Part shown: piece after piece, positions 1,779-41,158 of the stretch
Position numbering within the stretch: the stretch's first letter is position 1
Layout: the number at the start of each line of letters is the position of its first letter
Virus record (IMG/VR): IMGVR_UViG_3300042090_002687
Span: 1 to 46,922 of that record
Strand: one strand, 5' to 3'
Length of the DNA: 46,922 nucleotides
DNA from: a virus
Position numbers and translations under genes: made by a program
The notes under the pieces: generated by a model
The model's input: the letters and a program-made list of their open reading frames with translations, nothing else
What the model was told of the DNA's origin: nothing
Databases searched by the model: none

Positions 1779-2497
1779 ACTAGCTTGTTGCCCTTTTTGG
1801 AATTTTCTTTTTTTGTCAAAATTTGTAAGTTCCAGGGAACATGTAAGCCGGAAACATTTTTGCCTTTTAGAGGAATTATGTGGTCTACACTTCTTTTTTC
1901 GCCATCTCCTTTTTCGAGTTCTTTTGCTTTAATATAAAACGATTCTATTTCCCTTTTCTGTTCTTTGGAAAGCCATTTTGGCATTGCTTGCATTTTGCGG
2001 ATTTGATAATTTCTGGTATAAGCCCTTCTTTTGCCTGGATTTGCTTTATCCCAGTTAGCATTCATTTTCAGCTTTTTACCTGGATCGTTTTCATATCTTA
2101 TCGATTGTTTTTTGAGAATAATATCCCTGTTATTGGCATAATAGATAGACTCTTTAATTTTAATTTGTTCTGCATTATTCGCTCTGTAGATGACAGAATT
2201 TTCTTTAACTCGTTCCGGATTAGCTTTCTGCCACGCCCTGTTTTGCCGTAAGCGCTTTTTTTTATTTTTTCTATATCTCTTTTTACTATTTTTGCAGTGT
2301 TTTTCTGAGTTTCTCGAATACCAGGCAGCATTCGTGGCATCTATCTTTTCTTTATTATTTATATAATCATTTGCCGCGATAATTTTTCTGCAATCCTTAC
2401 ATACAGAATATCGACCATATTTGCCCTGTTTACTTTTATGGAACGAATCTAAAGATTTGAATACACCGCATTTTGTGCATTGTTTAGTCATTCTCAT
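1775..2497 (-). CDS. HNH endonuclease, probably a free-standing homing endonuclease
   Basis: A 240-aa protein. The N-terminus has a zinc finger of the type CTKCGVFKSLDSF...CKDC. The middle is very Asn/Lys-rich with degenerate repeats (YRANNAEQIK, YYANNRDIIL, NWDKANPGKR), typical of DNA-binding arrays in phage HNH enzymes. The C-terminus has the HNH core SVDHIIPLKGKNVSGLHVPW followed by NLQIL and KKENSKKG. It lies between the helicase and its upstream neighbour with ATGA-type overlaps on both sides, as mobile endonucleases often do. ATG at 2497 or 2491 could be the start. Confidence 0.8.
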   Translation of the reverse strand: MRMTKQCTKCGVFKSLDSFHKSKQGKYGRYSVCKDCRKIIAANDYINNKEKIDATNAAWYSRNSEKHCKNSKKRYRKNKKKRLRQNRAWQKANPERVKENSVIYRANNAEQIKIKESIYYANNRDIILKKQSIRYENDPGKKLKMNANWDKANPGKRRAYTRNYQIRKMQAMPKWLSKEQKREIESFYIKAKELEKGDGEKRSVDHIIPLKGKNVSGLHVPWNLQILTKKENSKKGNKLV

Positions 2498-3047
2498 ATC
2501 CCAGCAATTTCGCCATTTCCGGATCTATTGCATCCTCTCTCGGGGCAGTATTGTCTTTAATTGAAGAAGGATCAAATTCTTTTTCAAATGTAGGCTGCGA
2601 TACGGGTTCAGATTCTGTTTGCTCTCCCACAATTTCCTTATGTGTTTCTTTGGCTTCTTTTTCTGATTCAGATTCTTCTTCCCCTAATTCTCTGGTTCTA
2701 CCATTTTTTTTGTAATAATCAGATTCTGTGCCATACACCTCTATTATAGCTCTGTCTAGATCTTTGAGAGTACACTGGGTCATGTTAGCGTGTTTTTTGC
2801 TCCCAACACGATGTTTGGGGGGCCAAATTTGTCCAATTAGAGTATCTTTGAATAGACTAGTTTTAAAAAATCCCTTATCGGCCCCTAATTCTTTTAGAGT
2901 ATTTAAAAGCACTATTAGTAATCTAATTCTTTCTCCGTTTTTATAATTAATTCTATAGTGCAATCCGCCCGCGTCGCTCAAAGTTTTGGTTCCGTATTGT
3001 TCTGACCAAACAATGATCTCTTCTTTGATATCAAATGTGGCTGGCAT
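2484..3047 (-). CDS. Hypothetical protein upstream of the helicase
   Basis: A 187-aa protein. Residues 1-100 look globular (DIKEEIIVWSEQYGTKTL..., KELGADKGFFKTSLFKDTLI). From about residue 110 it becomes acidic and Glu/Ser-rich, ending in EMAKLLGYEND, which looks like a short C-terminal interaction peptide. It sits just upstream of the endonuclease and helicase genes, so a helicase accessory role is possible, but this rests on position only. No family recognised. Confidence 0.65.
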   Translation of the reverse strand: MPATFDIKEEIIVWSEQYGTKTLSDAGGLHYRINYKNGERIRLLIVLLNTLKELGADKGFFKTSLFKDTLIGQIWPPKHRVGSKKHANMTQCTLKDLDRAIIEVYGTESDYYKKNGRTRELGEEESESEKEAKETHKEIVGEQTESEPVSQPTFEKEFDPSSIKDNTAPREDAIDPEMAKLLGYEND

Positions 3048-3049
3048 TT

Positions 3050-3958
3050 TTACTCTAGCTCCCTGAGAAGTTGCCTAGCCATCTTTATCTCTTCTCTAAA
3101 GTTCGTTTTGCTTTTGTTGTTCTCAATGAAGTTCTTGATAATGTTGACTTTTTCTTCAGAAGCGGAGTTATAGAATTCTTCCTTTTTCTTTTCCCACTTA
3201 TCTTCATCTTCGATTCTAAAATACAATTCTTCAGGGTTCATGTTATGTATGCTATCACGGGGACTCATGTTAGCACCATCGAAATCGTCTATGGTCAGCG
3301 CTTTCTTTTCAATGGGGACTGCGACGTAGTAGTTGTTTCCGAAGAAAAAATTAGAATCGTCGAAGATCCCCGCTTTTTTCTTAATGGACTTGTAAATCGA
3401 AGAATCTAACTTTCTAAATCCCAATCGCTCGTAGTTCTTGATTAATTCCCTTAAACGTTTGGGTAGTTTGGGACCACAATAATAAAAGAACCCTTCTGTT
3501 GGAATTCCCTTGATATTTCGAGCCTTTTGACGGCAAATGCGAATCAAATCTTCCATTCTTTGTTTTAAGAAAAGAGTAAAGCTTGACTGATTTTTGTTTA
3601 GGACATCTTCTTTCTTAGGCTTACAATCTTCGTATTTTTGAAATACTTTGACAAATTCCCCGTACTTATCAGGCATTTTTTCTAGAGAAAAGAGGCCAAG
3701 GAAGCTGACTAGGTGAACATTGGCTATGTTGATTACATCCTCTTTCTCCAGGCCAACTAGGAGCAGCAGGGGGCGATAGGCGAAGAATGTTTTGGTAGCC
3801 AGAAGCTCTGCGATACGGAGATAGGGCTTCATATCTTTTTCGGTGGGATTATAGTTAACTCTGCGAAAGTACTGATGTCTTAGGTAACATAGTTCAAAAG
3901 AATCTCTACAATTTATCTTCTTCTCGTCTGCTTCTGGACGCTCTACTCGTTTTCTCAT
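3050..3958 (-). CDS. Hypothetical protein with weak sigma-factor-like features
   Basis: A 302-aa basic protein. The block FFAYRPLLLLVGLEKEDVIN near residue 60, followed by NVHLVSFLGLF, and then FTLFLKQRMEDLIRICRQKA near residue 125, has the order and spacing of sigma-70 regions 2.1-2.4 (helix, eDvin, then FxxxLxxRMxDLIR). The C-terminus is a Lys/Glu-rich helical stretch with no clear region 4.2. The resemblance is weak; a true sigma factor is better supported at 26861-27901. The tRNA-like element lies just upstream. It could also be an unrelated helical DNA-binding protein. Confidence 0.65.
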   Translation of the reverse strand: MRKRVERPEADEKKINCRDSFELCYLRHQYFRRVNYNPTEKDMKPYLRIAELLATKTFFAYRPLLLLVGLEKEDVINIANVHLVSFLGLFSLEKMPDKYGEFVKVFQKYEDCKPKKEDVLNKNQSSFTLFLKQRMEDLIRICRQKARNIKGIPTEGFFYYCGPKLPKRLRELIKNYERLGFRKLDSSIYKSIKKKAGIFDDSNFFFGNNYYVAVPIEKKALTIDDFDGANMSPRDSIHNMNPEELYFRIEDEDKWEKKKEEFYNSASEEKVNIIKNFIENNKSKTNFREEIKMARQLLRELE

Positions 3959-4009
3959 GTTGTCCTTGTTTCCGAAAATATTTTGGCGGGTCGGATTGGA
4001 TACCGACTA

Positions 4010-4076
4010 AGGGCCAGGGTGGACTCGAACCACCGACTAGAGGTGTCTCATCTTCTTCCAACTGAAGTACCGGCCC
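4010..4076 (-). tRNA. tRNA-like element with a truncated anticodon arm
   Basis: Read on the minus strand from 4076 it has a full 7-bp acceptor stem (GGGCCGG with CTGGCCC, one G-T pair), TA at positions 8-9, a D-arm CTTC-AGTTGGAA-GAAG with the conserved GG, and a perfect T-arm GGTGG-TTCGAGT-CCACC. Only 17 bases separate the D and T arms, against about 23 in a normal tRNA. The best anticodon arm is GAG-ACAC-CTC with no 7-base loop and no U33. No CCA is encoded. It is therefore either a decayed tRNA gene or a tRNA mimic; no amino acid can be assigned. Confidence 0.55.
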
Positions 4077-4281
4077 TTGAACATGACACCCTGTGATGCG
4101 TCCATCCCGCATCGCCGCCAAATCGTAAAAGCTTTTGGTAGGTCAGGCTTGCCAGCCCAACTCTGAATGGTCAATAGTCAACCCCATATCCGATATTGCT
4201 AATCGGCCCCGTATACTGAGCCTCGGATTGTTTAGCCTATTATTCTTCAGTATCCCAATGGTTATCGTGCCTACCACGCCG
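4077..4281 (-). ncRNA. Gene-free stretch with several hairpins upstream of the tRNA-like element
   Basis: No convincing coding frame. On the minus strand it holds ATACTGA/TCAGTAT (7 bp), CCGAT-TAGCAAT-ATCGG (5 bp, 7-base loop), GGTTG-ACTAT-TGACC and GGCT-GGCA-AGCC. A long-range pairing of GGTAGG with CCTACC would close the whole segment. The structure continues into the tRNA-like element, so the two may form one transcript. A processed phage RNA is plausible but unproven. Confidence 0.4.
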
Positions 4282-4302
4282 CTACCAAAATCGTAAAAGC
4301 TT
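4120..4302. repeat. 15-bp direct repeat flanking the structured stretch
   Basis: The 15-mer AAATCGTAAAAGCTT occurs at 4120-4134 and again at 4288-4302, 168 bp apart. The right copy is the last part of the coding region of the small basic protein at 4282-4524. The left copy lies at the far side of the hairpin-rich segment. Sequence next to the repeats is also related. A duplicated gene 3' end beside an insert is what integration or recombination of a small element would leave. Confidence 0.6.
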
Positions 4303-4524
4303 AAAAAAATCTTTGTACCAAGGTAGTTTGGCGATGCTGGAATTTCCGCCACTTTCGCTACGACCTACGGTGTAGCTATAATCACCAGCAGTAGAATAGT
4401 AATCTGTAATCGTCAATCGTGGTTGCGCGTTTTGTTCCTTGCTGACGGTCTTTCGTCGATCGGATTTGCCTTTCGTCCTAGTTTTGGTCGCTGTTGTTTT
4501 CTTTGCGAGTTTCTTCTTTGCCAT
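4282..4524 (-). CDS. Small very basic protein
   Basis: An 80-aa protein. The first 30 residues are Lys/Thr/Arg-rich (MAKKKLAKKTTATKTRTKGK) and resemble histone-tail-like or nucleic-acid-binding tails. The rest (LTITDYYSTAGDYSYTVGR..., ending FFKLLRFW) is more neutral. It lies 2 bases downstream of the RecA-like gene and is probably co-translated with it. Its C-terminal codons form one copy of the 15-bp direct repeat. Function unknown. Confidence 0.6.
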   Translation of the reverse strand: MAKKKLAKKTTATKTRTKGKSDRRKTVSKEQNAQPRLTITDYYSTAGDYSYTVGRSESGGNSSIAKLPWYKDFFKLLRFW

Positions 4525-4526
4525 GA

Positions 4527-5567
4527 CTATTCCTTGCCGTCCAATTTGTGAACTTCTTCCAGGATGGATTTGGCTAAGGCCGGGTTATCTCTAATCGCAG
4601 TTGCGCATTCCTTTTTGCCAATCCATTTCTCTTTCCCAAAAGAATAGGTGCGTCCTTCTAATTTAATGACGCCTACGCCCTTGGCCAAGAAGAACAGCTC
4701 CTCGTGTTGGTTCACGATCCCTTTCTCGTAATCTAAGGTGAAAACCCCAGCCCTACCAGCAGGTCCGATCGAGGATTCTTCCATCTTAACGAAAATTTTA
4801 TGAGCGTTCAAGAGCTTATTTCCCCTGGCGTCTGTAGCGTCATCCTCAAAGGTCTTTCCTTCGAGATCAACCTTGTCTTCTGCCGCACCGGCTTTCTTGA
4901 GTGACACGAAGTACTCAAACGCGTGACGGACGGCGAACGAAGCTTGCATCTTGGTTTTAGGGCCATATTGGCCAGCATCGAAATTTGCTCGCATCTGTGC
5001 GGTCCCAATAAGAAGAATCTTGTTCCTCTTGCAAAAAGGGACCAACTTAGAGAGTCCGGCCTGCAATGTTAAAGCAGAATCGCCCATAAGATGATTCGCG
5101 ACGGAATCGGCGTCTTTCCTCTTGTTGCCCTGCACGTTGGTGATGGAATCGATGATGATCATCCTGAGCGGCATTCCGTCCTGGACTAAGGCGCGGATAT
5201 CGTTCTCAACTCGATCGAAGATCTCGACTGGGTCTGAAGTGTCGTAAATAACGAGCCTATCTTTATCGATTCCACTGAAGACTGGGCTAAAGGAGCCCCG
5301 GATCTCGGTGTTAAAGTAGATAGCGATACCTTCGGGGTCTCTTTTGTGCATCTCCCCTATGATGCTATAGCAACTCAAAGACTTACCAGCTTTTGGTTCG
5401 CTGAAAAATAAAACGGAAGCATTCTTCGGAATCCCGTGACTGGGATTGGAAAAAATCCAATTAAAATACGGACTTGGTGTGTATAAACAATTTTCCGCTG
5501 CGAATGGATTATATTGAAAATCTACTGCATCATCGTACGCCTTTAACTGTTTGGTCCATTTGTTCAT
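4527..5567 (-). CDS. RecA/UvsX-like recombinase
   Basis: A 346-aa RecA-family strand-exchange ATPase. The Walker A loop is SEPKAGKS (56-63) and the Walker B strand MIIIDS (about 136-141). They are followed by the DNA-binding-loop region NVQGNKRKDADSV and LLIGTAQMRANFD, where RecA has its switch glutamine. Length and layout match T4 UvsX and other phage recombinases (about 350-390 aa) better than bacterial RecA with its C-terminal lobe. It starts in an ATGA overlap with the gene at 5564-6097 and lies two genes from ssb. It would load on SSB-coated DNA for recombination-dependent replication and repair. Confidence 0.88.
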   Translation of the reverse strand: MNKWTKQLKAYDDAVDFQYNPFAAENCLYTPSPYFNWIFSNPSHGIPKNASVLFFSEPKAGKSLSCYSIIGEMHKRDPEGIAIYFNTEIRGSFSPVFSGIDKDRLVIYDTSDPVEIFDRVENDIRALVQDGMPLRMIIIDSITNVQGNKRKDADSVANHLMGDSALTLQAGLSKLVPFCKRNKILLIGTAQMRANFDAGQYGPKTKMQASFAVRHAFEYFVSLKKAGAAEDKVDLEGKTFEDDATDARGNKLLNAHKIFVKMEESSIGPAGRAGVFTLDYEKGIVNQHEELFFLAKGVGVIKLEGRTYSFGKEKWIGKKECATAIRDNPALAKSILEEVHKLDGKE

Positions 5568-32125: not shown

Positions 32126-35100
32126 ATGAATTTTAATGAACTTACAGAACAGGAAAAACTCAAATATGCCGAACTAATGTTTCGGCCCCTGAGTTCTGCT
32201 CAGGAAATAAAAAATTGGGCACAATTATTTCTCGGATTAGAATTGCCTATGGAAACAATTGACCCGGACAGCACTTCGAATCCCTTAGATGCCATTTGGC
32301 AAGTCTACAATACTTTTAAACAAAATTCGGGCGATAAAAATCCAGGTTATATTTTTTTATCATCACGAGAAAGCATGAAAACTATAAGTACGGCTATTTT
32401 GGAGACACTCCTTCTTCTCCATTTTTCTCTGGACGTGGGGCACGCTGCCGCAACAGAAGATCAGGCAGCCGTTGGCTTAGGATATATCAGTGGCTTCCTT
32501 AACAGTATAGAGCCTCTGATGCGGGCGGCTGGATGGGAAAATATAACGCAAAATAAACGACTTTTTAAATTTAAAACTCCTCATGGAAAAAATCCATTCA
32601 TCAAAATTGTTATTTGTACGCCCAAAGGAATGAACAGTTTACATAGTAATATCATGCTGTTAGATGAGTTGGATCTCGCCGATTCCAATGCACTAAAAGA
32701 AGGAAAGTACATAGTAAGTTACAGCAAGGGGATCTATGGTGTCAAGGTCTACCTGAGTACCAGGAAGTATGCCTATGGAAATATGTCGCAAGCCATTGAT
32801 AAAGCTGCGGAAATGAATTATAAGGTTCTCAATTGGAATATTATCGATGTTACGGAACGTTGCCCTGAAGAGAGACATTTGCCAAATGGACCAAAACAAG
32901 ATGTGTACGTGGCAAAAAATCTACCCCTTCAACGTTTGTCTCTAGAAGAATACAATATCTTGCCAGAGATAGAAAAATTAAAATGGGAATTAGTAAAAAA
33001 TGCGCATGAAGGCTGTGCAAAATGCCCTCTGCTTCCTGTATGTAAAATGCGCTTGAGCAAAAAACCTGCGACTGCCACAGGCGGGTTTTACAAGCCCATT
33101 TCCAGTGTAATTCAATCATTTCTAGAAAACGATCCTGATTCTGCAGAAGCACAGCTTATGTGCTTTAGTGAAAAGACTCAAATTTTAATGTCCGATGGAA
33201 CTACAAAAAATATTGAAAATATCGAAGTCGGAGATTTTGTGCTCTCTCATACCGGAACTTCTAGAAAAATCACCCAGATATTCAAAAGAAATTATGATGG
33301 ATCGGCTTTTAAAGTGAACAATGTGAACTGGAAACATTTTGATGATACTTTTGTTACGACTGAACATCCATATTTTTTGAATGGCAAAAATTTTGACAGT
33401 ATTAGCAATGCAAAACTTTTTCAGTTCGATAAATGGGGAGCTCTAAAACAAAAAGGAGATTATCTATCTTTGCCGATCCAATATATCCCCAGCGACAAGA
33501 GGGATATTTTATACAAAGATTTCGTTGATGTACCGTTAAAAGAATTTAACGGATGGGTTAAACCAAAAATTTCCACCGGTAGATATGTGCCCCCTAAATT
33601 TTCTTTAACCGAAGATTTTGGTTGGATTCTTGGTTATTTTCTAGCCGAGGGATATTTTATCAAGAGTACTAAATACGCTACCAAATTAAGTGGTATCACA
33701 TTTTGTTCAGACAATAGAGAAATTGAATACCATGAACGTGTGCGCAAATTTGCGTCGCAATCAAAACTTACTACATCAGAATTTCAAAACAAAGCAGGGC
33801 ATGGCTATACCGTGGATATTTACAATAATGCCTTGGCGGAGTTATTTTTTCGACTTTGTGGACAGTATAGTGATAAGAAAAAACTTCATCCAGCTTTGAT
33901 GGATGCAAACATAGAATTTTTGCGCGGTATTTTGGAAGGTTTCGATGCAGGAGATGGCACCAAACGGAAAAAACCGTATAAAGAATTGACGACCACTAGC
34001 TATAAATTGGCATCTCAGTTATTTACTATAGCGGCAAGATTAGGTCTGTGTCCCAGGCTCACTAGAAAACCATTCGAAAAGGATAGAAAAAGGGCATATT
34101 TGATTCACTACATCGATAAGACGCATGTGCATGTTCAAAAACGCACCAGATTCAAGATAGAAAATAATTACAACCAATATAGATTAGATAACTTAGAGCC
34201 TACATTTTATAAAGGTACTGTTTACAATTTAGAAGTAGAAATTGATCATAGTTATATAGGCAACGGAGTAGCGGTTCACAATTGTTGGAAACCAGGCTCT
34301 ACTGGATTGGTATATCCGCGCTTCAATCCTATTAAAGGAAACGTAATAACGATAAAAGAAGCATATGAATTATTTACCGGCGCAAAAACTAACAATCCCA
34401 TTAATGAGTTAACCTTACTAAATGAAATGAAAAAAGCCGGGATTTTGTTCTATGCAGGCGTAGACTTTGGATATACACACGATTTTACCATAACCGTAGC
34501 CGCTTTGCTTCCCAACGCGGACGTGTGGCTAATGGAGACTTATGCGGCTCCTCAAATGGAATTTGCGGATCAATTAGAAGTAGCCAAGGCTTTCAGAGAT
34601 AAATATCAAATTCACAAATGGTTTCCAGATCAAGCAATGCCATCACACATTAAATCCTTTAGAAAAAACGGAATGGTATGTCCAAAATTCACCAAAGATG
34701 TGCTGGGAGGCATAGAAGCGATTAGATCGAAAATTGTATCGGGCAATGGAGTTCGCAAATTTAAAGTAATTGCTAATGAAAGCAACAAAAAGACAATTTC
34801 TGCTTTGAGCAAACATAGATTTGTTCTAGATGGACAAGGAAATGTTACCTTAACGCCAGATGACACTCGAGGTATAGCGGATATTTGCGATAGTTTAAGG
34901 TACATAGGTCAAAACGTCTTTCCCGTTCGTGGGCCCCAAAAACCAGAGCACACTTGGATCGACATCAACGGCAAAATCTTAGACCACAATGACCCAGAAG
35001 CTAAAGCAAAAGCTCTCATAGCTTCCCAGCATGAGCAGCAGATGAAGGCCAAAATAGCGGAATTGGTTGGCCCCGGTCCCATTACCATCTCTACGAACAA

Positions 35101-35128
35101 GAAGGGTGGTTTCTTTTTTACGAGTTAA
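32126..35128 (+). CDS. Terminase large subunit interrupted by an intein
   Basis: A 1000-aa precursor. Exteins are residues 1-345 and 720-1000 (626 aa joined), normal for TerL. The ATPase region has a P-loop-like IFLSSRESMKT (79-86, without the usual Gly-rich loop) and Walker B LLDELD (178-183). A Cys group CAKCPLLPVCKM lies near 300. The nuclease part starts AGVDFGYTHD (first RNase H-fold Asp) and runs to DTRGIADICDSLRY. Residues 346-719 are the intein described separately. TerL drives DNA into the prohead and cuts it. The small terminase is not next to it. Confidence 0.9.
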   Translation: MNFNELTEQEKLKYAELMFRPLSSAQEIKNWAQLFLGLELPMETIDPDSTSNPLDAIWQVYNTFKQNSGDKNPGYIFLSSRESMKTISTAILETLLLLHFSLDVGHAAATEDQAAVGLGYISGFLNSIEPLMRAAGWENITQNKRLFKFKTPHGKNPFIKIVICTPKGMNSLHSNIMLLDELDLADSNALKEGKYIVSYSKGIYGVKVYLSTRKYAYGNMSQAIDKAAEMNYKVLNWNIIDVTERCPEERHLPNGPKQDVYVAKNLPLQRLSLEEYNILPEIEKLKWELVKNAHEGCAKCPLLPVCKMRLSKKPATATGGFYKPISSVIQSFLENDPDSAEAQLMCFSEKTQILMSDGTTKNIENIEVGDFVLSHTGTSRKITQIFKRNYDGSAFKVNNVNWKHFDDTFVTTEHPYFLNGKNFDSISNAKLFQFDKWGALKQKGDYLSLPIQYIPSDKRDILYKDFVDVPLKEFNGWVKPKISTGRYVPPKFSLTEDFGWILGYFLAEGYFIKSTKYATKLSGITFCSDNREIEYHERVRKFASQSKLTTSEFQNKAGHGYTVDIYNNALAELFFRLCGQYSDKKKLHPALMDANIEFLRGILEGFDAGDGTKRKKPYKELTTTSYKLASQLFTIAARLGLCPRLTRKPFEKDRKRAYLIHYIDKTHVHVQKRTRFKIENNYNQYRLDNLEPTFYKGTVYNLEVEIDHSYIGNGVAVHNCWKPGSTGLVYPRFNPIKGNVITIKEAYELFTGAKTNNPINELTLLNEMKKAGILFYAGVDFGYTHDFTITVAALLPNADVWLMETYAAPQMEFADQLEVAKAFRDKYQIHKWFPDQAMPSHIKSFRKNGMVCPKFTKDVLGGIEAIRSKIVSGNGVRKFKVIANESNKKTISALSKHRFVLDGQGNVTLTPDDTRGIADICDSLRYIGQNVFPVRGPQKPEHTWIDINGKILDHNDPEAKAKALIASQHEQQMKAKIAELVGPGPITISTNKKGGFFFTS
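33161..34282 (+). mobile_element. LAGLIDADG intein in terL
   Basis: 374 codons. Starts Cys (CFSEKTQILMSDG, block A), block B TTEHPYF with the conserved T and H, and ends VAVHN followed by Cys of the extein. Two LAGLIDADG-like helices, WILGYFLAEGYF and FLRGILEGFDAGDG, form a dodecapeptide homing endonuclease with acidic residues in each motif, so it may be active. All splicing residues are present. Insertion is between AQLM and CWKPG of TerL. Confidence 0.9.
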
Positions 35129-39110: not shown

Positions 39111-40823
39111 GTGTTCGGAGTCTCCTCTACATCCAAAGAAGCCTTAAGTAAAATTGTAGAAGAGATATTTGACAACATCGCTCTGCAGTTCATCGGCGAT
39201 ATTCCTAAACTTCAAAACAAGAAAAGATTAGTTATATCCTCCGAACCAAACCTTGGCTTGGCGCACCTCTTTGTTCAAGCCATGAAGAATAGAACTCCTA
39301 ATGATCTAGAAAAGGATGTTCTCAAAAGTCTCTTGACTAGCTCTTACGGCTATATCGAATCCCTTAAAAATAAAACTACATCCAACATTGCGGAGAGAAT
39401 TGATGGTTTGGCCAGAGAAGCAAAGCTGCAGGATAGAAAGCTCAGTAGAGAGGAAGTTCAGGCTGTTATTGCCGAGGAATTTAAAAGAGCAAAAGCTGCT
39501 ATGGCAACTATAGCGGAGGCTGAAAGCAGTAAGTTTAAAACTCTGGGAACTGCCATTGACATAACTAGAGTTTCCGCTTCGGTGGGTGATGATGACCCCA
39601 CTATATTTTTTGTAGTCATAAAAGATAATGTGACATGTCTAGAGGAAAATGAAAATGTTATTACGACTAAAGGAATAGTCAAAGTAGGAAATTTAAAAAT
39701 TGGAGATATTTTAAAAAATCCATCCACACCAAGCCAACGTGGTGGCAACAAAGTACTTGCGATAGAAAAAAAGATAAAGGAAACTATAGAATTAGACTTT
39801 GGAAATCAAAAAATCACATGTACCAGAGATCATCCTCTTTTGGTTAGATTTGGTAAGGTATTGTGTTTCATGGAGGCAGATAGAATTACAAAAGAACATG
39901 ATGTAGTTTTAATGGATGAAATAAAAACTAAAGGACAATTTAAGATGATATCTAGGGCTAAAACAGCCAGAGATTTTATGAAAAACCTAGGATATACGGA
40001 TGCTTGGGATTTTTGGAGAGAGAATATAGATGAAATGATAAATATTGCCAAGAAAACTGGAAGCAGAATTCCTATAATGAAAAAATATGGAATTGATGTT
40101 CCTATGTGGAATAGATATGTAAAACACATACTGACTGGCTACAATAGCACTATAAAATTTGTAGGGGGATGTCCTGGTAATAACTTTAATATTGAATATA
40201 TAACTAACAAATCTCGCAATCTAAAGATTAAAAGAAAAGAAAAATATGAGTTATTGGGAGCAGACGATTGGTTTGTTAGAGAAATAAAAAATGGCAAAAA
40301 CTGTTCTACTATAGCAAAAGAGCAAGACTTATCTGTCTCATTTTTAAGAAGTAAAATAAAAATTTTAGGCTTATTATCTTTTGTGAGAGCTAAGGGCGGA
40401 AGGGCGAATTGGAATAAGAACGGGGATTTTTTAATTTCATTAGGAAAAAAACGAGGAACTCCACACTTTGTCTCTCTTTCTAAACCAGAAAAATTGGTGG
40501 GAGAAGGACTTTCCAAAGCATTTTTAGATCTAAAAACTAATTTTACAATAGGAAATATCAAAGTGGATTTTTGCATTCCTTCCGAAAAATTAGCGATAGA
40601 ATATGATGGCTCGGGGCATAATTTATTAGATAAGATAGCCGGCAATAAAACAAATAGGATTACAAATAAGAAAGATTATGCCAGGGATAAATTTCTTAAA
40701 GAATCAGGTTATCGTATTTTTAGAATTAAAGCATCCAAAGATAAATTTGACATAAATTCTATAATAAATTCCATACATAAGTTTCTTTCTTCAAAAAAGA
40801 GTTTCGATATATGGCAAAATTAA
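39111..40823 (+). CDS. Head morphogenesis protein N-part + N-intein + Vsr-like endonuclease
   Basis: A 570-aa frame (GTG start). Residues 1-175 are the N-extein, a helical SPP1 gp7/Mu gpF-like domain. Intein Cys176 starts CLEENENVITTKGIVKVGNL; block B is TCTRDHPLLV (T and H conserved). From about 250 an endonuclease follows: helix-turn-helix-like DNA-binding modules (CSTIAKEQDLSVSFLRSKIK), then a Vsr/DUF559-type nuclease (KVDFCIPSEKLAIEYDGSGH, 484-503, catalytic Asp near 499; GYRIFRIKAS). It stops at 40821, before the C-intein blocks, which are in the -1 frame. This is not the usual single-frame intein. Confidence 0.88.
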   Translation: MFGVSSTSKEALSKIVEEIFDNIALQFIGDIPKLQNKKRLVISSEPNLGLAHLFVQAMKNRTPNDLEKDVLKSLLTSSYGYIESLKNKTTSNIAERIDGLAREAKLQDRKLSREEVQAVIAEEFKRAKAAMATIAEAESSKFKTLGTAIDITRVSASVGDDDPTIFFVVIKDNVTCLEENENVITTKGIVKVGNLKIGDILKNPSTPSQRGGNKVLAIEKKIKETIELDFGNQKITCTRDHPLLVRFGKVLCFMEADRITKEHDVVLMDEIKTKGQFKMISRAKTARDFMKNLGYTDAWDFWRENIDEMINIAKKTGSRIPIMKKYGIDVPMWNRYVKHILTGYNSTIKFVGGCPGNNFNIEYITNKSRNLKIKRKEKYELLGADDWFVREIKNGKNCSTIAKEQDLSVSFLRSKIKILGLLSFVRAKGGRANWNKNGDFLISLGKKRGTPHFVSLSKPEKLVGEGLSKAFLDLKTNFTIGNIKVDFCIPSEKLAIEYDGSGHNLLDKIAGNKTNRITNKKDYARDKFLKESGYRIFRIKASKDKFDINSIINSIHKFLSSKKSFDIWQN

Positions 40824-40915
40824 AACAAAAAACATATTTGGGTTTAAAAACTGTGGTAGAATTAGCGGTAACCAACGCAATTTATGCTTCTGAAAATGGA
40901 TTGATACATCACAAT
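39636..40915 (+). mobile_element. Split or frameshifted intein with Vsr-like homing endonuclease
   Basis: Intein limits: Cys at 39636 to HHN ending at 40915, followed by extein Cys at 40916. If joined through the -1 frame it is about 427 codons. The order is Hint-N, HTH modules, Vsr-like nuclease, Hint-C. Vsr-type endonucleases in split inteins are known from ocean metagenomes (the fractured-gene arrangement), where the nuclease is usually a separate gene; here it is fused to the N-part. AT-rich compared with the head genes, as expected for a mobile insert. Confidence 0.85.
40793..40799 (+). promoter_or_regulatory. A AAA AAG slippery heptamer in the intein frame overlap
   Basis: The 0-frame codons of the first frame read TCA AAA AAG AGT, so A-AAA-AAG is correctly phased for simultaneous -1 slippage (the dnaX-type site). 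A -1 shift here continues GAG TTT CGA TAT ATG into the C-intein frame. The only window in which such a shift could work is between the previous -1 frame stop (TAA about 40775) and the 0-frame stop (40821). No clear downstream stem or upstream Shine-Dalgarno-like stimulator was seen. Confidence 0.5.
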
Positions 40916-41158
40916 TGTAACGACTGTAAACGCCTTCACTTAATGCCCGATGGAATAACTCCCAGACTTTGGAAATTGTCCGAATTGAAAGCATCTTATG
41001 GGAAAAGAGGGGATGAAGTTCCATCCCTGATCAACAGACATCCGTTTTGTCGTTGCCAATTAGTCTATTTAACCAAGGGCTTCGGCTTTAATGATAAAGG
41101 GAAACTTAAATACGTTCAAGAAGGCTACGATGCTTATTCTATTCAGAAGGCAAATTAA
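40811..41158 (+). CDS. C-intein + head morphogenesis protein C-part
   Basis: A 115-aa frame. Residues 1-35 are the C-intein: block F-like KTVVELAVTNAIYASENGL, then IHHN. Cys36 begins the C-extein: CNDCKRLHLMPDGITPRLWK, with later HPFCRCQLVYL, the Cys/His signature of Mu gpF/SPP1 gp7 head proteins. It overlaps the first frame by 13 bases. An ATG at 40811 with GAG 9 bases upstream can start a separate polypeptide; alternatively the frame is reached by -1 frameshifting. Joined exteins give 255 aa. Confidence 0.85.
   Translation: MAKLKQKTYLGLKTVVELAVTNAIYASENGLIHHNCNDCKRLHLMPDGITPRLWKLSELKASYGKRGDEVPSLINRHPFCRCQLVYLTKGFGFNDKGKLKYVQEGYDAYSIQKAN

What the first reader, a model, noticed from the sequence alone, without database searches (positions are those of the whole stretch)
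39111..41158. Intein divided between two frames, with a Vsr-like endonuclease and a phased A AAA AAG slippery site
Seen: Hint-N and a Vsr-type nuclease sit in one frame (stop 40821) while Hint-C and the C-extein are in the -1 frame (ATG 40811). A canonical A-AAA-AAG heptamer at 40793-40799 is phased to move ribosomes into that frame, within a usable window of only about 45 bases. Known: split inteins with nearby Vsr-like homing endonucleases exist in metagenomes. Inference: this is either a split trans-splicing intein whose nuclease is fused to the N-half, or a cis-intein whose splicing depends on programmed -1 frameshifting. The second would be a new way to set the ratio of spliced to unspliced head protein.
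Basis: partly seen in the sequence, partly recalled or inferred. Interest (0 to 1): 0.9.

Follow-up and report, generated by a model that had tools for sequence, protein, structure and literature searches.

The report
Split intein with nuclease-fused N-half
A phage head gene is cut in two by a self-removing protein insert whose two halves are made from overlapping reading frames and should be stitched back together as proteins; three distantly related phages keep exactly the same 13-base overlap, which points to a split insert with a built-in second start codon, not to the proposed ribosome slippage.

Summary
In detail: one ORF (GTG 39111 to TAA 40823) encodes N-extein, intein N-half and an EDxHD/Vsr-type nuclease; a second ORF, in the -1 frame (ATG 40811 to TAA 41158), encodes a 35-aa intein C-half and the C-extein. 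Removing the intein in silico gives a 255-aa minor head protein that aligns with dozens of uninterrupted relatives; the insertion falls before an invariant Cys. The decisive evidence is two diverged homologues at the same site (L046, L091; inteins about 40% identical). Both keep the same architecture and exactly the same 13-nt overlap, with ATG or GTG at the intein C-half boundary. Neither has a slippery heptamer in its shift window, and in L046 that window is only 16 nt. In the window, A AAA AAG occurs at chance frequency and no structure follows it. So this is a naturally split, trans-splicing intein with its homing endonuclease fused to the N-half and the C-half started inside the nuclease's last codons, probably by translational coupling. 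It is a new variant of the 'fractured gene' arrangement, in which the nuclease is a separate ORF. The frameshift idea is not supported, and the sequencing-error idea is refuted. Trans-splicing and coupling are inferred, not shown.

The parts
39111..40823 (+). N-ORF (GTG start, TAA stop, 570 aa): N-extein + intein N-half + EDxHD/Vsr-type nuclease
   Evidence: homologous ORFs L046:2148-3908 and L091:3703-4983
39111..39635 (+). N-extein, 175 aa of the minor head protein
   Evidence: aligns with the N-part of uninterrupted relatives; Mx1 hit E=3e-5
39636..39929 (+). Intein N-half (Hint-N; Cys1, block A CLEENENV, block B TRDH), about 98 aa
39930..40820 (+). Nested nuclease region: helical, presumably DNA-binding part, then DUF559/EDxHD catalytic domain (about 40539-40787)
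   Evidence: half of it is deleted in frame in L091
40599..40619 (+). Nuclease core motif EYDGSGH
   Evidence: invariant in the three homologues and in free-standing phage nucleases
40781..40823 (+). Only stretch in which a -1 shift could reach the C-ORF (43 nt)
40793..40799 (+). A_AAA_AAG heptamer, in phase; not conserved. Homologous codons are 'gag agg' (L046) and 'gga agg' (L091), part of purine-rich tracts 5' of the C-ORF start
40811..40823 (+). 13-nt ORF overlap ATGGCAAAATTAA; identical in length and phase in L046 (ATGGCGCGTCTAG) and L091 (GTGGGTCGCCTAA)
40811..41158 (+). C-ORF (ATG start, TAA stop, 115 aa): intein C-half + C-extein
40811..40915 (+). Intein C-half, 35 aa, MAKLKQ...GLIHHN (terminal His-Asn)
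40916..41155 (+). C-extein, 80 aa, starts at the invariant Cys of CxxC..HLMPDG

Best explanation
A mobile intein sits at the invariant CxxC of a tailed-phage minor head protein. It is naturally split between its nested homing endonuclease and its C-terminal splicing segment. The first protein is N-extein + intein N-half + EDxHD/Vsr-type nuclease. The second starts at an ATG inside the last codons of the first ORF (13-nt overlap, -1 frame) and is the 35-aa intein C-half + C-extein. The two proteins associate and trans-splice (Cys1 and Cys+1 nucleophiles, C-terminal Asn) to give the 255-aa head protein, releasing the N-half with its nuclease. Ribosomes that finish the nuclease at TAA 40823 probably re-initiate at the ATG 10 nt upstream, so both halves come from one mRNA in linked amounts. 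The nuclease would copy the element into empty head genes. Shown: architecture, conservation of the overlap and start, gap-free reconstruction of the head protein, scattered distribution. Inferred: trans-splicing activity, translational coupling, homing activity.
For: The same two-ORF layout and exact 13-nt overlap recur in L046 (40% identical intein) and L091, with ATG or GTG at the intein C-half boundary. The in-silico spliced protein aligns gap-free at the junction with relatives that have no intein. Splicing residues Cys1, TxxH, His-Asn and Cys+1 are present in all three. TIGR01445 is above cut-off in both homologues. The best profile hits among solved inteins are NrdJ-1 and gp41-1 (weak), which I know as 'fractured gene' split inteins. 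The nuclease matches I-Bth0305I and Vsr. Strong Shine-Dalgarno before the L091 C-start (-10.3 kcal/mol, best 1.2% of positions) and moderate in L046. Lateral spread: exteins of window and L046 are 27% identical but inteins about 40%, their nearest extein kin are empty, and intein GC is 31% against 41% for the exteins.
Against: No experiment shows splicing or expression. The window's own C-start has no better than background Shine-Dalgarno pairing (-2.4 kcal/mol, 50th percentile), so coupling there rests on the overlap alone. Only three occupied sites were found. The model of the C-half was useless (mean pLDDT 35), and the intein C-half alone finds no solved structure.
Confidence: 0.87

Rival explanations
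1. Cis-intein made by programmed -1 ribosomal frameshifting at A_AAA_AAG; splicing happens only in frameshifted chains and sets the ratio of spliced to unspliced protein.
For: A real, correctly phased A_AAA_AAG lies in the 43-nt shift window. The fused product would have the standard order Hint-N, nuclease, Hint-C, as in the single-frame intein of L113.
Against: No slippery heptamer in the L046 shift window (16 nt) and none anywhere in the L091 N-ORF. AAAAAAG is at chance frequency and the intein is 31% GC. No stimulatory structure: z=0.44, and the 50-nt downstream MFE is weaker than most positions. It does not explain a start codon at the C-half boundary in 3 of 3.
Confidence: 0.06
2. Both routes operate in this phage: mainly an internal start at 40811, plus a minor amount of -1 frameshift fusion that splices in cis.
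For: The heptamer is efficient in E. coli in general (own knowledge), is correctly phased, and nothing tested here excludes low-level slippage.
Against: Not conserved; no downstream structure.
Confidence: 0.15
3. Sequencing or assembly error, or a recent mutation, broke a single-frame intein at the A6 run.
For: The A6 run is the kind of place where a base could be lost; single-frame inteins with a nested nuclease of this type exist in the same gene at another site (L113).
Against: Two independent contigs from other samples carry the identical -1 relation and 13-nt overlap without any A6 run.
Confidence: 0.01
4. A dead intein: the head gene is broken and a second copy elsewhere in the genome supplies the protein.
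For: The window is a virus record that may be incomplete, so a second copy elsewhere cannot be excluded.
Against: Splicing residues and extein residues are conserved in all three, while the nuclease, not the splicing parts, is the piece partly lost in L091.
Confidence: 0.04

Closest known systems
'Fractured genes' of Dassa et al. 2009 (doi 10.1093/nar/gkp095; paper not held, known from citations and own knowledge): split inteins gp41, NrdJ, IMPDH with Vsr-like/EDxHD homing endonucleases
   Same: Gene cut by a split intein at the canonical site; nuclease of the same family lies between the two halves; phage setting; Hint-N profile hits NrdJ-1 and gp41-1, though weakly
   Different: The nuclease is not a separate ORF: it is fused in frame to the intein N-half, and the C-half begins inside the nuclease's end by a conserved 13-nt overlap
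Split DNA polymerase B intein of Pseudomonas phage MIJ3 (PMC6892783)
   Same: Phage split intein with a homing endonuclease between the halves
   Different: HNH nuclease as its own ORF (orf154 between orf153 and orf155); different host gene
Full-length (bifunctional) inteins with nested homing endonuclease, e.g. the single-frame intein of L113 at a second site of this same gene
   Same: Order Hint-N, nuclease, Hint-C; in L113 the nested nuclease is also DUF559-type
   Different: L113 is one reading frame; here the chain ends after the nuclease and a new chain starts with Hint-C
I-Bth0305I (EDxHD homing endonuclease, PDB 3r3p)
   Same: Best structural match of the nuclease domain, probability 1.00; DUF559 is named as EDxHD in PMC9403480
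   Different: I-Bth0305I is a group I intron nuclease with its own DNA-binding part; this one is the C-terminal part of a split-intein half
Cyanobacterial DnaE split inteins (Npu/Ssp), own knowledge
   Same: Intein C-half of about 35 aa starting at its own Met
   Different: DnaE halves are encoded far apart, with no nuclease and no overlap

Membership tests
Intein (class 1) | Hint-N with Cys1, block B TxxH, C-terminal His-Asn, Cys/Ser/Thr +1 | tested here: met
   Present in all three homologues; TIGR01445 above cut-off in L046 and L091
Intein (class 1) | Precise insertion: relatives without it have a continuous extein | tested here: met
   Dozens of uninterrupted homologues; junction aligns without gaps
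Intein (class 1) | Splicing activity | not testable with these tools
   Needs expression
Naturally split intein | Two separately translated halves split at the canonical endonuclease position, each fused to one extein | tested here: met
   Two ORFs; C-half 34-35 aa with its own ATG or GTG in 3 of 3; separate translation itself is inferred
'Fractured gene' arrangement (Dassa 2009) | Split intein with an EDxHD/Vsr-like nuclease between the halves | tested here: met
'Fractured gene' arrangement (Dassa 2009) | Nuclease as a free-standing ORF between the halves (as I know the family; paper not held) | tested here: not met
   Nuclease in frame with the intein N-half, no stop between
EDxHD/Vsr-type homing endonuclease | Catalytic fold related to I-Bth0305I/Vsr and DUF559 | tested here: met
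   Foldseek rank 1-4 (E 1.4e-3 to 2.2e-2, probability 1.00) on a medium-confidence model; DUF559 above cut-off
EDxHD/Vsr-type homing endonuclease | Cleavage of the empty site | not testable with these tools
   Needs assay; lateral spread is indirect support
Programmed -1 frameshift gene | Slippery heptamer in phase in the overlap | tested here: met
   window only
Programmed -1 frameshift gene | Conservation of the slippery site in homologues | tested here: not met
   Absent from L046 and L091
Programmed -1 frameshift gene | Downstream stimulatory structure | tested here: not met
   z=0.44; weak local folding

The most novel reading that the evidence does not exclude
The overlap is a device that ties the phage to the nuclease's reading frame: the C-half of an essential head protein can be translated only by ribosomes that have just read through the homing endonuclease, so frameshift or nonsense mutations in the nuclease cost the phage its head protein. 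L091, where about 150 codons of the nuclease are missing in frame while the overlap is intact, would be a case in which the nuclease lost its job but the coupling could not be lost.
Probability: 0.35. Interest if true: 0.68.

Novelty: new variant of a known kind. Interest (0 to 1): 0.55.

Why it matters
It gives a layout between ordinary inteins with a nested nuclease and split inteins with a separate nuclease gene, and so bears on how split inteins arise: by a stop and restart between the nuclease and the C-terminal splicing segment, kept in place afterwards. It is a compact natural pair of split-intein halves expressed together from one message, in a phage head gene. If coupling is shown, it also gives a simple reason why a selfish nuclease would be hard to lose.

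Tried and rejected
Frameshift conservation: rejected. Sequencing error: rejected by L046 and L091. Search with the whole 570-aa N-ORF in viral contigs: no hit, because the patterns fell in variable parts. DNA pattern for Asn-Cys-x-x-Cys...HLMPDG: no other locus; too strict, since it also missed L046 and L091. Genome collections: no relative of extein or intein in 84,980 species genomes. Intein C-half against PDB sequences: nothing. AlphaFold model of the C-ORF: pLDDT 35, not used. A scan with the nuclease domain found mainly free-standing phage nucleases and no further split inteins. Residue-level assignment of the EDxHD catalytic residues was not possible, because the sequence search did not align to 3r3p. 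The 2009 fractured-genes paper is not held.

Full report
Observation. The N-ORF runs from GTG 39111 to TAA 40823 (570 aa); the C-ORF runs from ATG 40811 to TAA 41158 (115 aa) in the -1 frame; they overlap by 13 nt. Cys1 of the intein is at 39636 and the +1 Cys at 40916. Joining residues 1-175 of the first ORF to residue 36 onward of the second gives a 255-aa protein.

Host protein. That 255-aa protein aligns without a gap at the junction with uninterrupted homologues. About ninety uninterrupted loci, some of them duplicates of one contig, were seen, including Myxococcus phage Mx1. The family is a distant Mu-F/SPP1-gp7-like minor head or head-morphogenesis protein, directly after the portal and a scaffold-like gene. 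The insertion is immediately before the first, invariant Cys of CxxC...HLMPDG.

Intein and nuclease. Hint-N is recognised by its match to an intein-like domain (2lwy, E=2.9e-4), and by TIGR01445 above the curated cut-off in the two homologues. Block residues Cys1, TxxH, His-Asn and Cys+1 are present in all three. The nuclease is Pfam DUF559 above cut-off; the model's best structural matches are the I-Bth0305I catalytic domain and Vsr, probability 1.00 (model pLDDT 66). DUF559 is assigned to the EDxHD homing endonucleases in PMC9403480.

The deciding comparison. Two other phage contigs have a homologous intein at the same site. L046 (IMGVR_UViG_2140918008_000058) has an N-ORF 2148-3908 ending FDTWRV* and a C-ORF from ATG 3896. 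L091 (IMGVR_UViG_3300045993_000425) has an N-ORF 3703-4983 ending FQKWVA* and a C-ORF from GTG 4971. The overlap is 13 nt and -1 in all three: ATGGCAAAATTAA, ATGGCGCGTCTAG, GTGGGTCGCCTAA. In each, the start codon stands at the first residue of the intein C-half (34-35 aa). The inteins are about 40% identical, so this is old, and it cannot be one sequencing error.

Frameshift test. Canonical in-phase X_XXY_YYZ heptamers within the reachable stretch: window one (A_AAA_AAG), L046 none in only 16 nt, L091 none in the whole N-ORF. In the window, AAAAAAG is found 29 times against 28.9 expected, and the N-ORF has nine in-phase slippery heptamers. Codon shuffling puts one of any type in the last 14 codons in 15% of trials and A_AAA_AAR in 4.6%. 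There is no downstream stem: z=0.44, and folding is weaker than at most positions of the gene. The homologous codons read 'gag agg' and 'gga agg' and belong to purine-rich stretches just 5' of the C-start. In L091 this stretch is a strong Shine-Dalgarno (-10.3 kcal/mol), in L046 a moderate one (-5.8), in the window no better than background (-2.4). The heptamer is therefore most simply read as an AT-rich version of that purine stretch (inference).

Coupling. The 13-nt overlap, the weak Shine-Dalgarno in the window and the tight packing of the upstream genes suggest termination-reinitiation. In L091 about 150 codons of the nuclease, relative to the other two, are missing in frame, yet the rest of the nuclease and the overlap are kept. 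That fits a need to keep the frame open to the overlap, but a frame-keeping deletion has a one-in-three chance, so this is weak evidence.

Mobility. Exteins of the window and L046 are 27% identical and fall on opposite sides of strongly supported branches; their nearest kin, L014 (69%) and L036 (78%), have no intein. The intein parts are 38-46% identical between the window and L046 while the N-exteins are 24% (the short C-exteins are 48%). In the window the intein is 30-31% GC against 40-41% for the exteins. This fits lateral spread by homing, although repeated loss cannot be excluded. Only 3 of 61 non-redundant loci are occupied at this site; the search favoured uninterrupted copies.

A useful contrast. 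Two loci carry single-frame inteins at a second site of the same gene (HPHC/RC): L112 with a LAGLIDADG nuclease and L113 with a nested DUF559-type nuclease. So the same nuclease type can sit in an unbroken intein, and the split at the first site is a property of that intein lineage.

Literature. The closest arrangement is the fractured genes of Dassa et al. 2009 (doi 10.1093/nar/gkp095, not held; cited in PMC11766414, PMC7090010 and PMC10448857) and the MIJ3 split polymerase (PMC6892783); the nuclease there is a separate ORF (for Dassa 2009 from own knowledge). Searches of the held library for split inteins with overlapping frames found no matching case; most subscription papers are not held, so this is not proof of novelty.

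Verdict. A naturally split intein with an EDxHD/Vsr-type nuclease fused to the N-half and an overlapping start for the C-half: a new variant of a known kind. Architecture and conservation are shown; trans-splicing, coupling and homing are inferred.

Noticed in passing
window 32126-35128 (intein about aa 345-719): The large terminase ORF carries a separate, single-frame intein with a LAGLIDADG_3 nuclease.
   Followed up: partly
L113:4476-6329: The same head gene carries a single-frame intein at a second site (HPHC/RC) with a nested DUF559/EDxHD-type nuclease (EYDGGGH), apparently an intact full-length intein of this nuclease type.
   Followed up: partly
L112:4485-6431: The same second site is occupied by a single-frame intein with a LAGLIDADG nuclease: different nuclease types at one insertion site.
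   Followed up: partly
L091:48-3701: The portal gene just upstream appears to contain two in-frame inteins, so this phage would have three inteins in two neighbouring head genes.
   Followed up: no
L091:4231-4980: The nuclease of the split intein lacks about 150 codons in frame, keeping EYDGSGH and the 13-nt overlap.
   Followed up: partly
L006 and L007, ORF from about 5622: A further gene downstream of the head gene carries an intein-like insert rich in Gly/Ser/Arg between Hint-N-like and Hint-C-like ends (MYSIDSNTILYP...CGIVTSN).
   Followed up: no
window 39636-40915: Base composition of the intein (30-31% GC) differs from the exteins (40-41%) and the window (43%), suggesting recent arrival.
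   Followed up: yes
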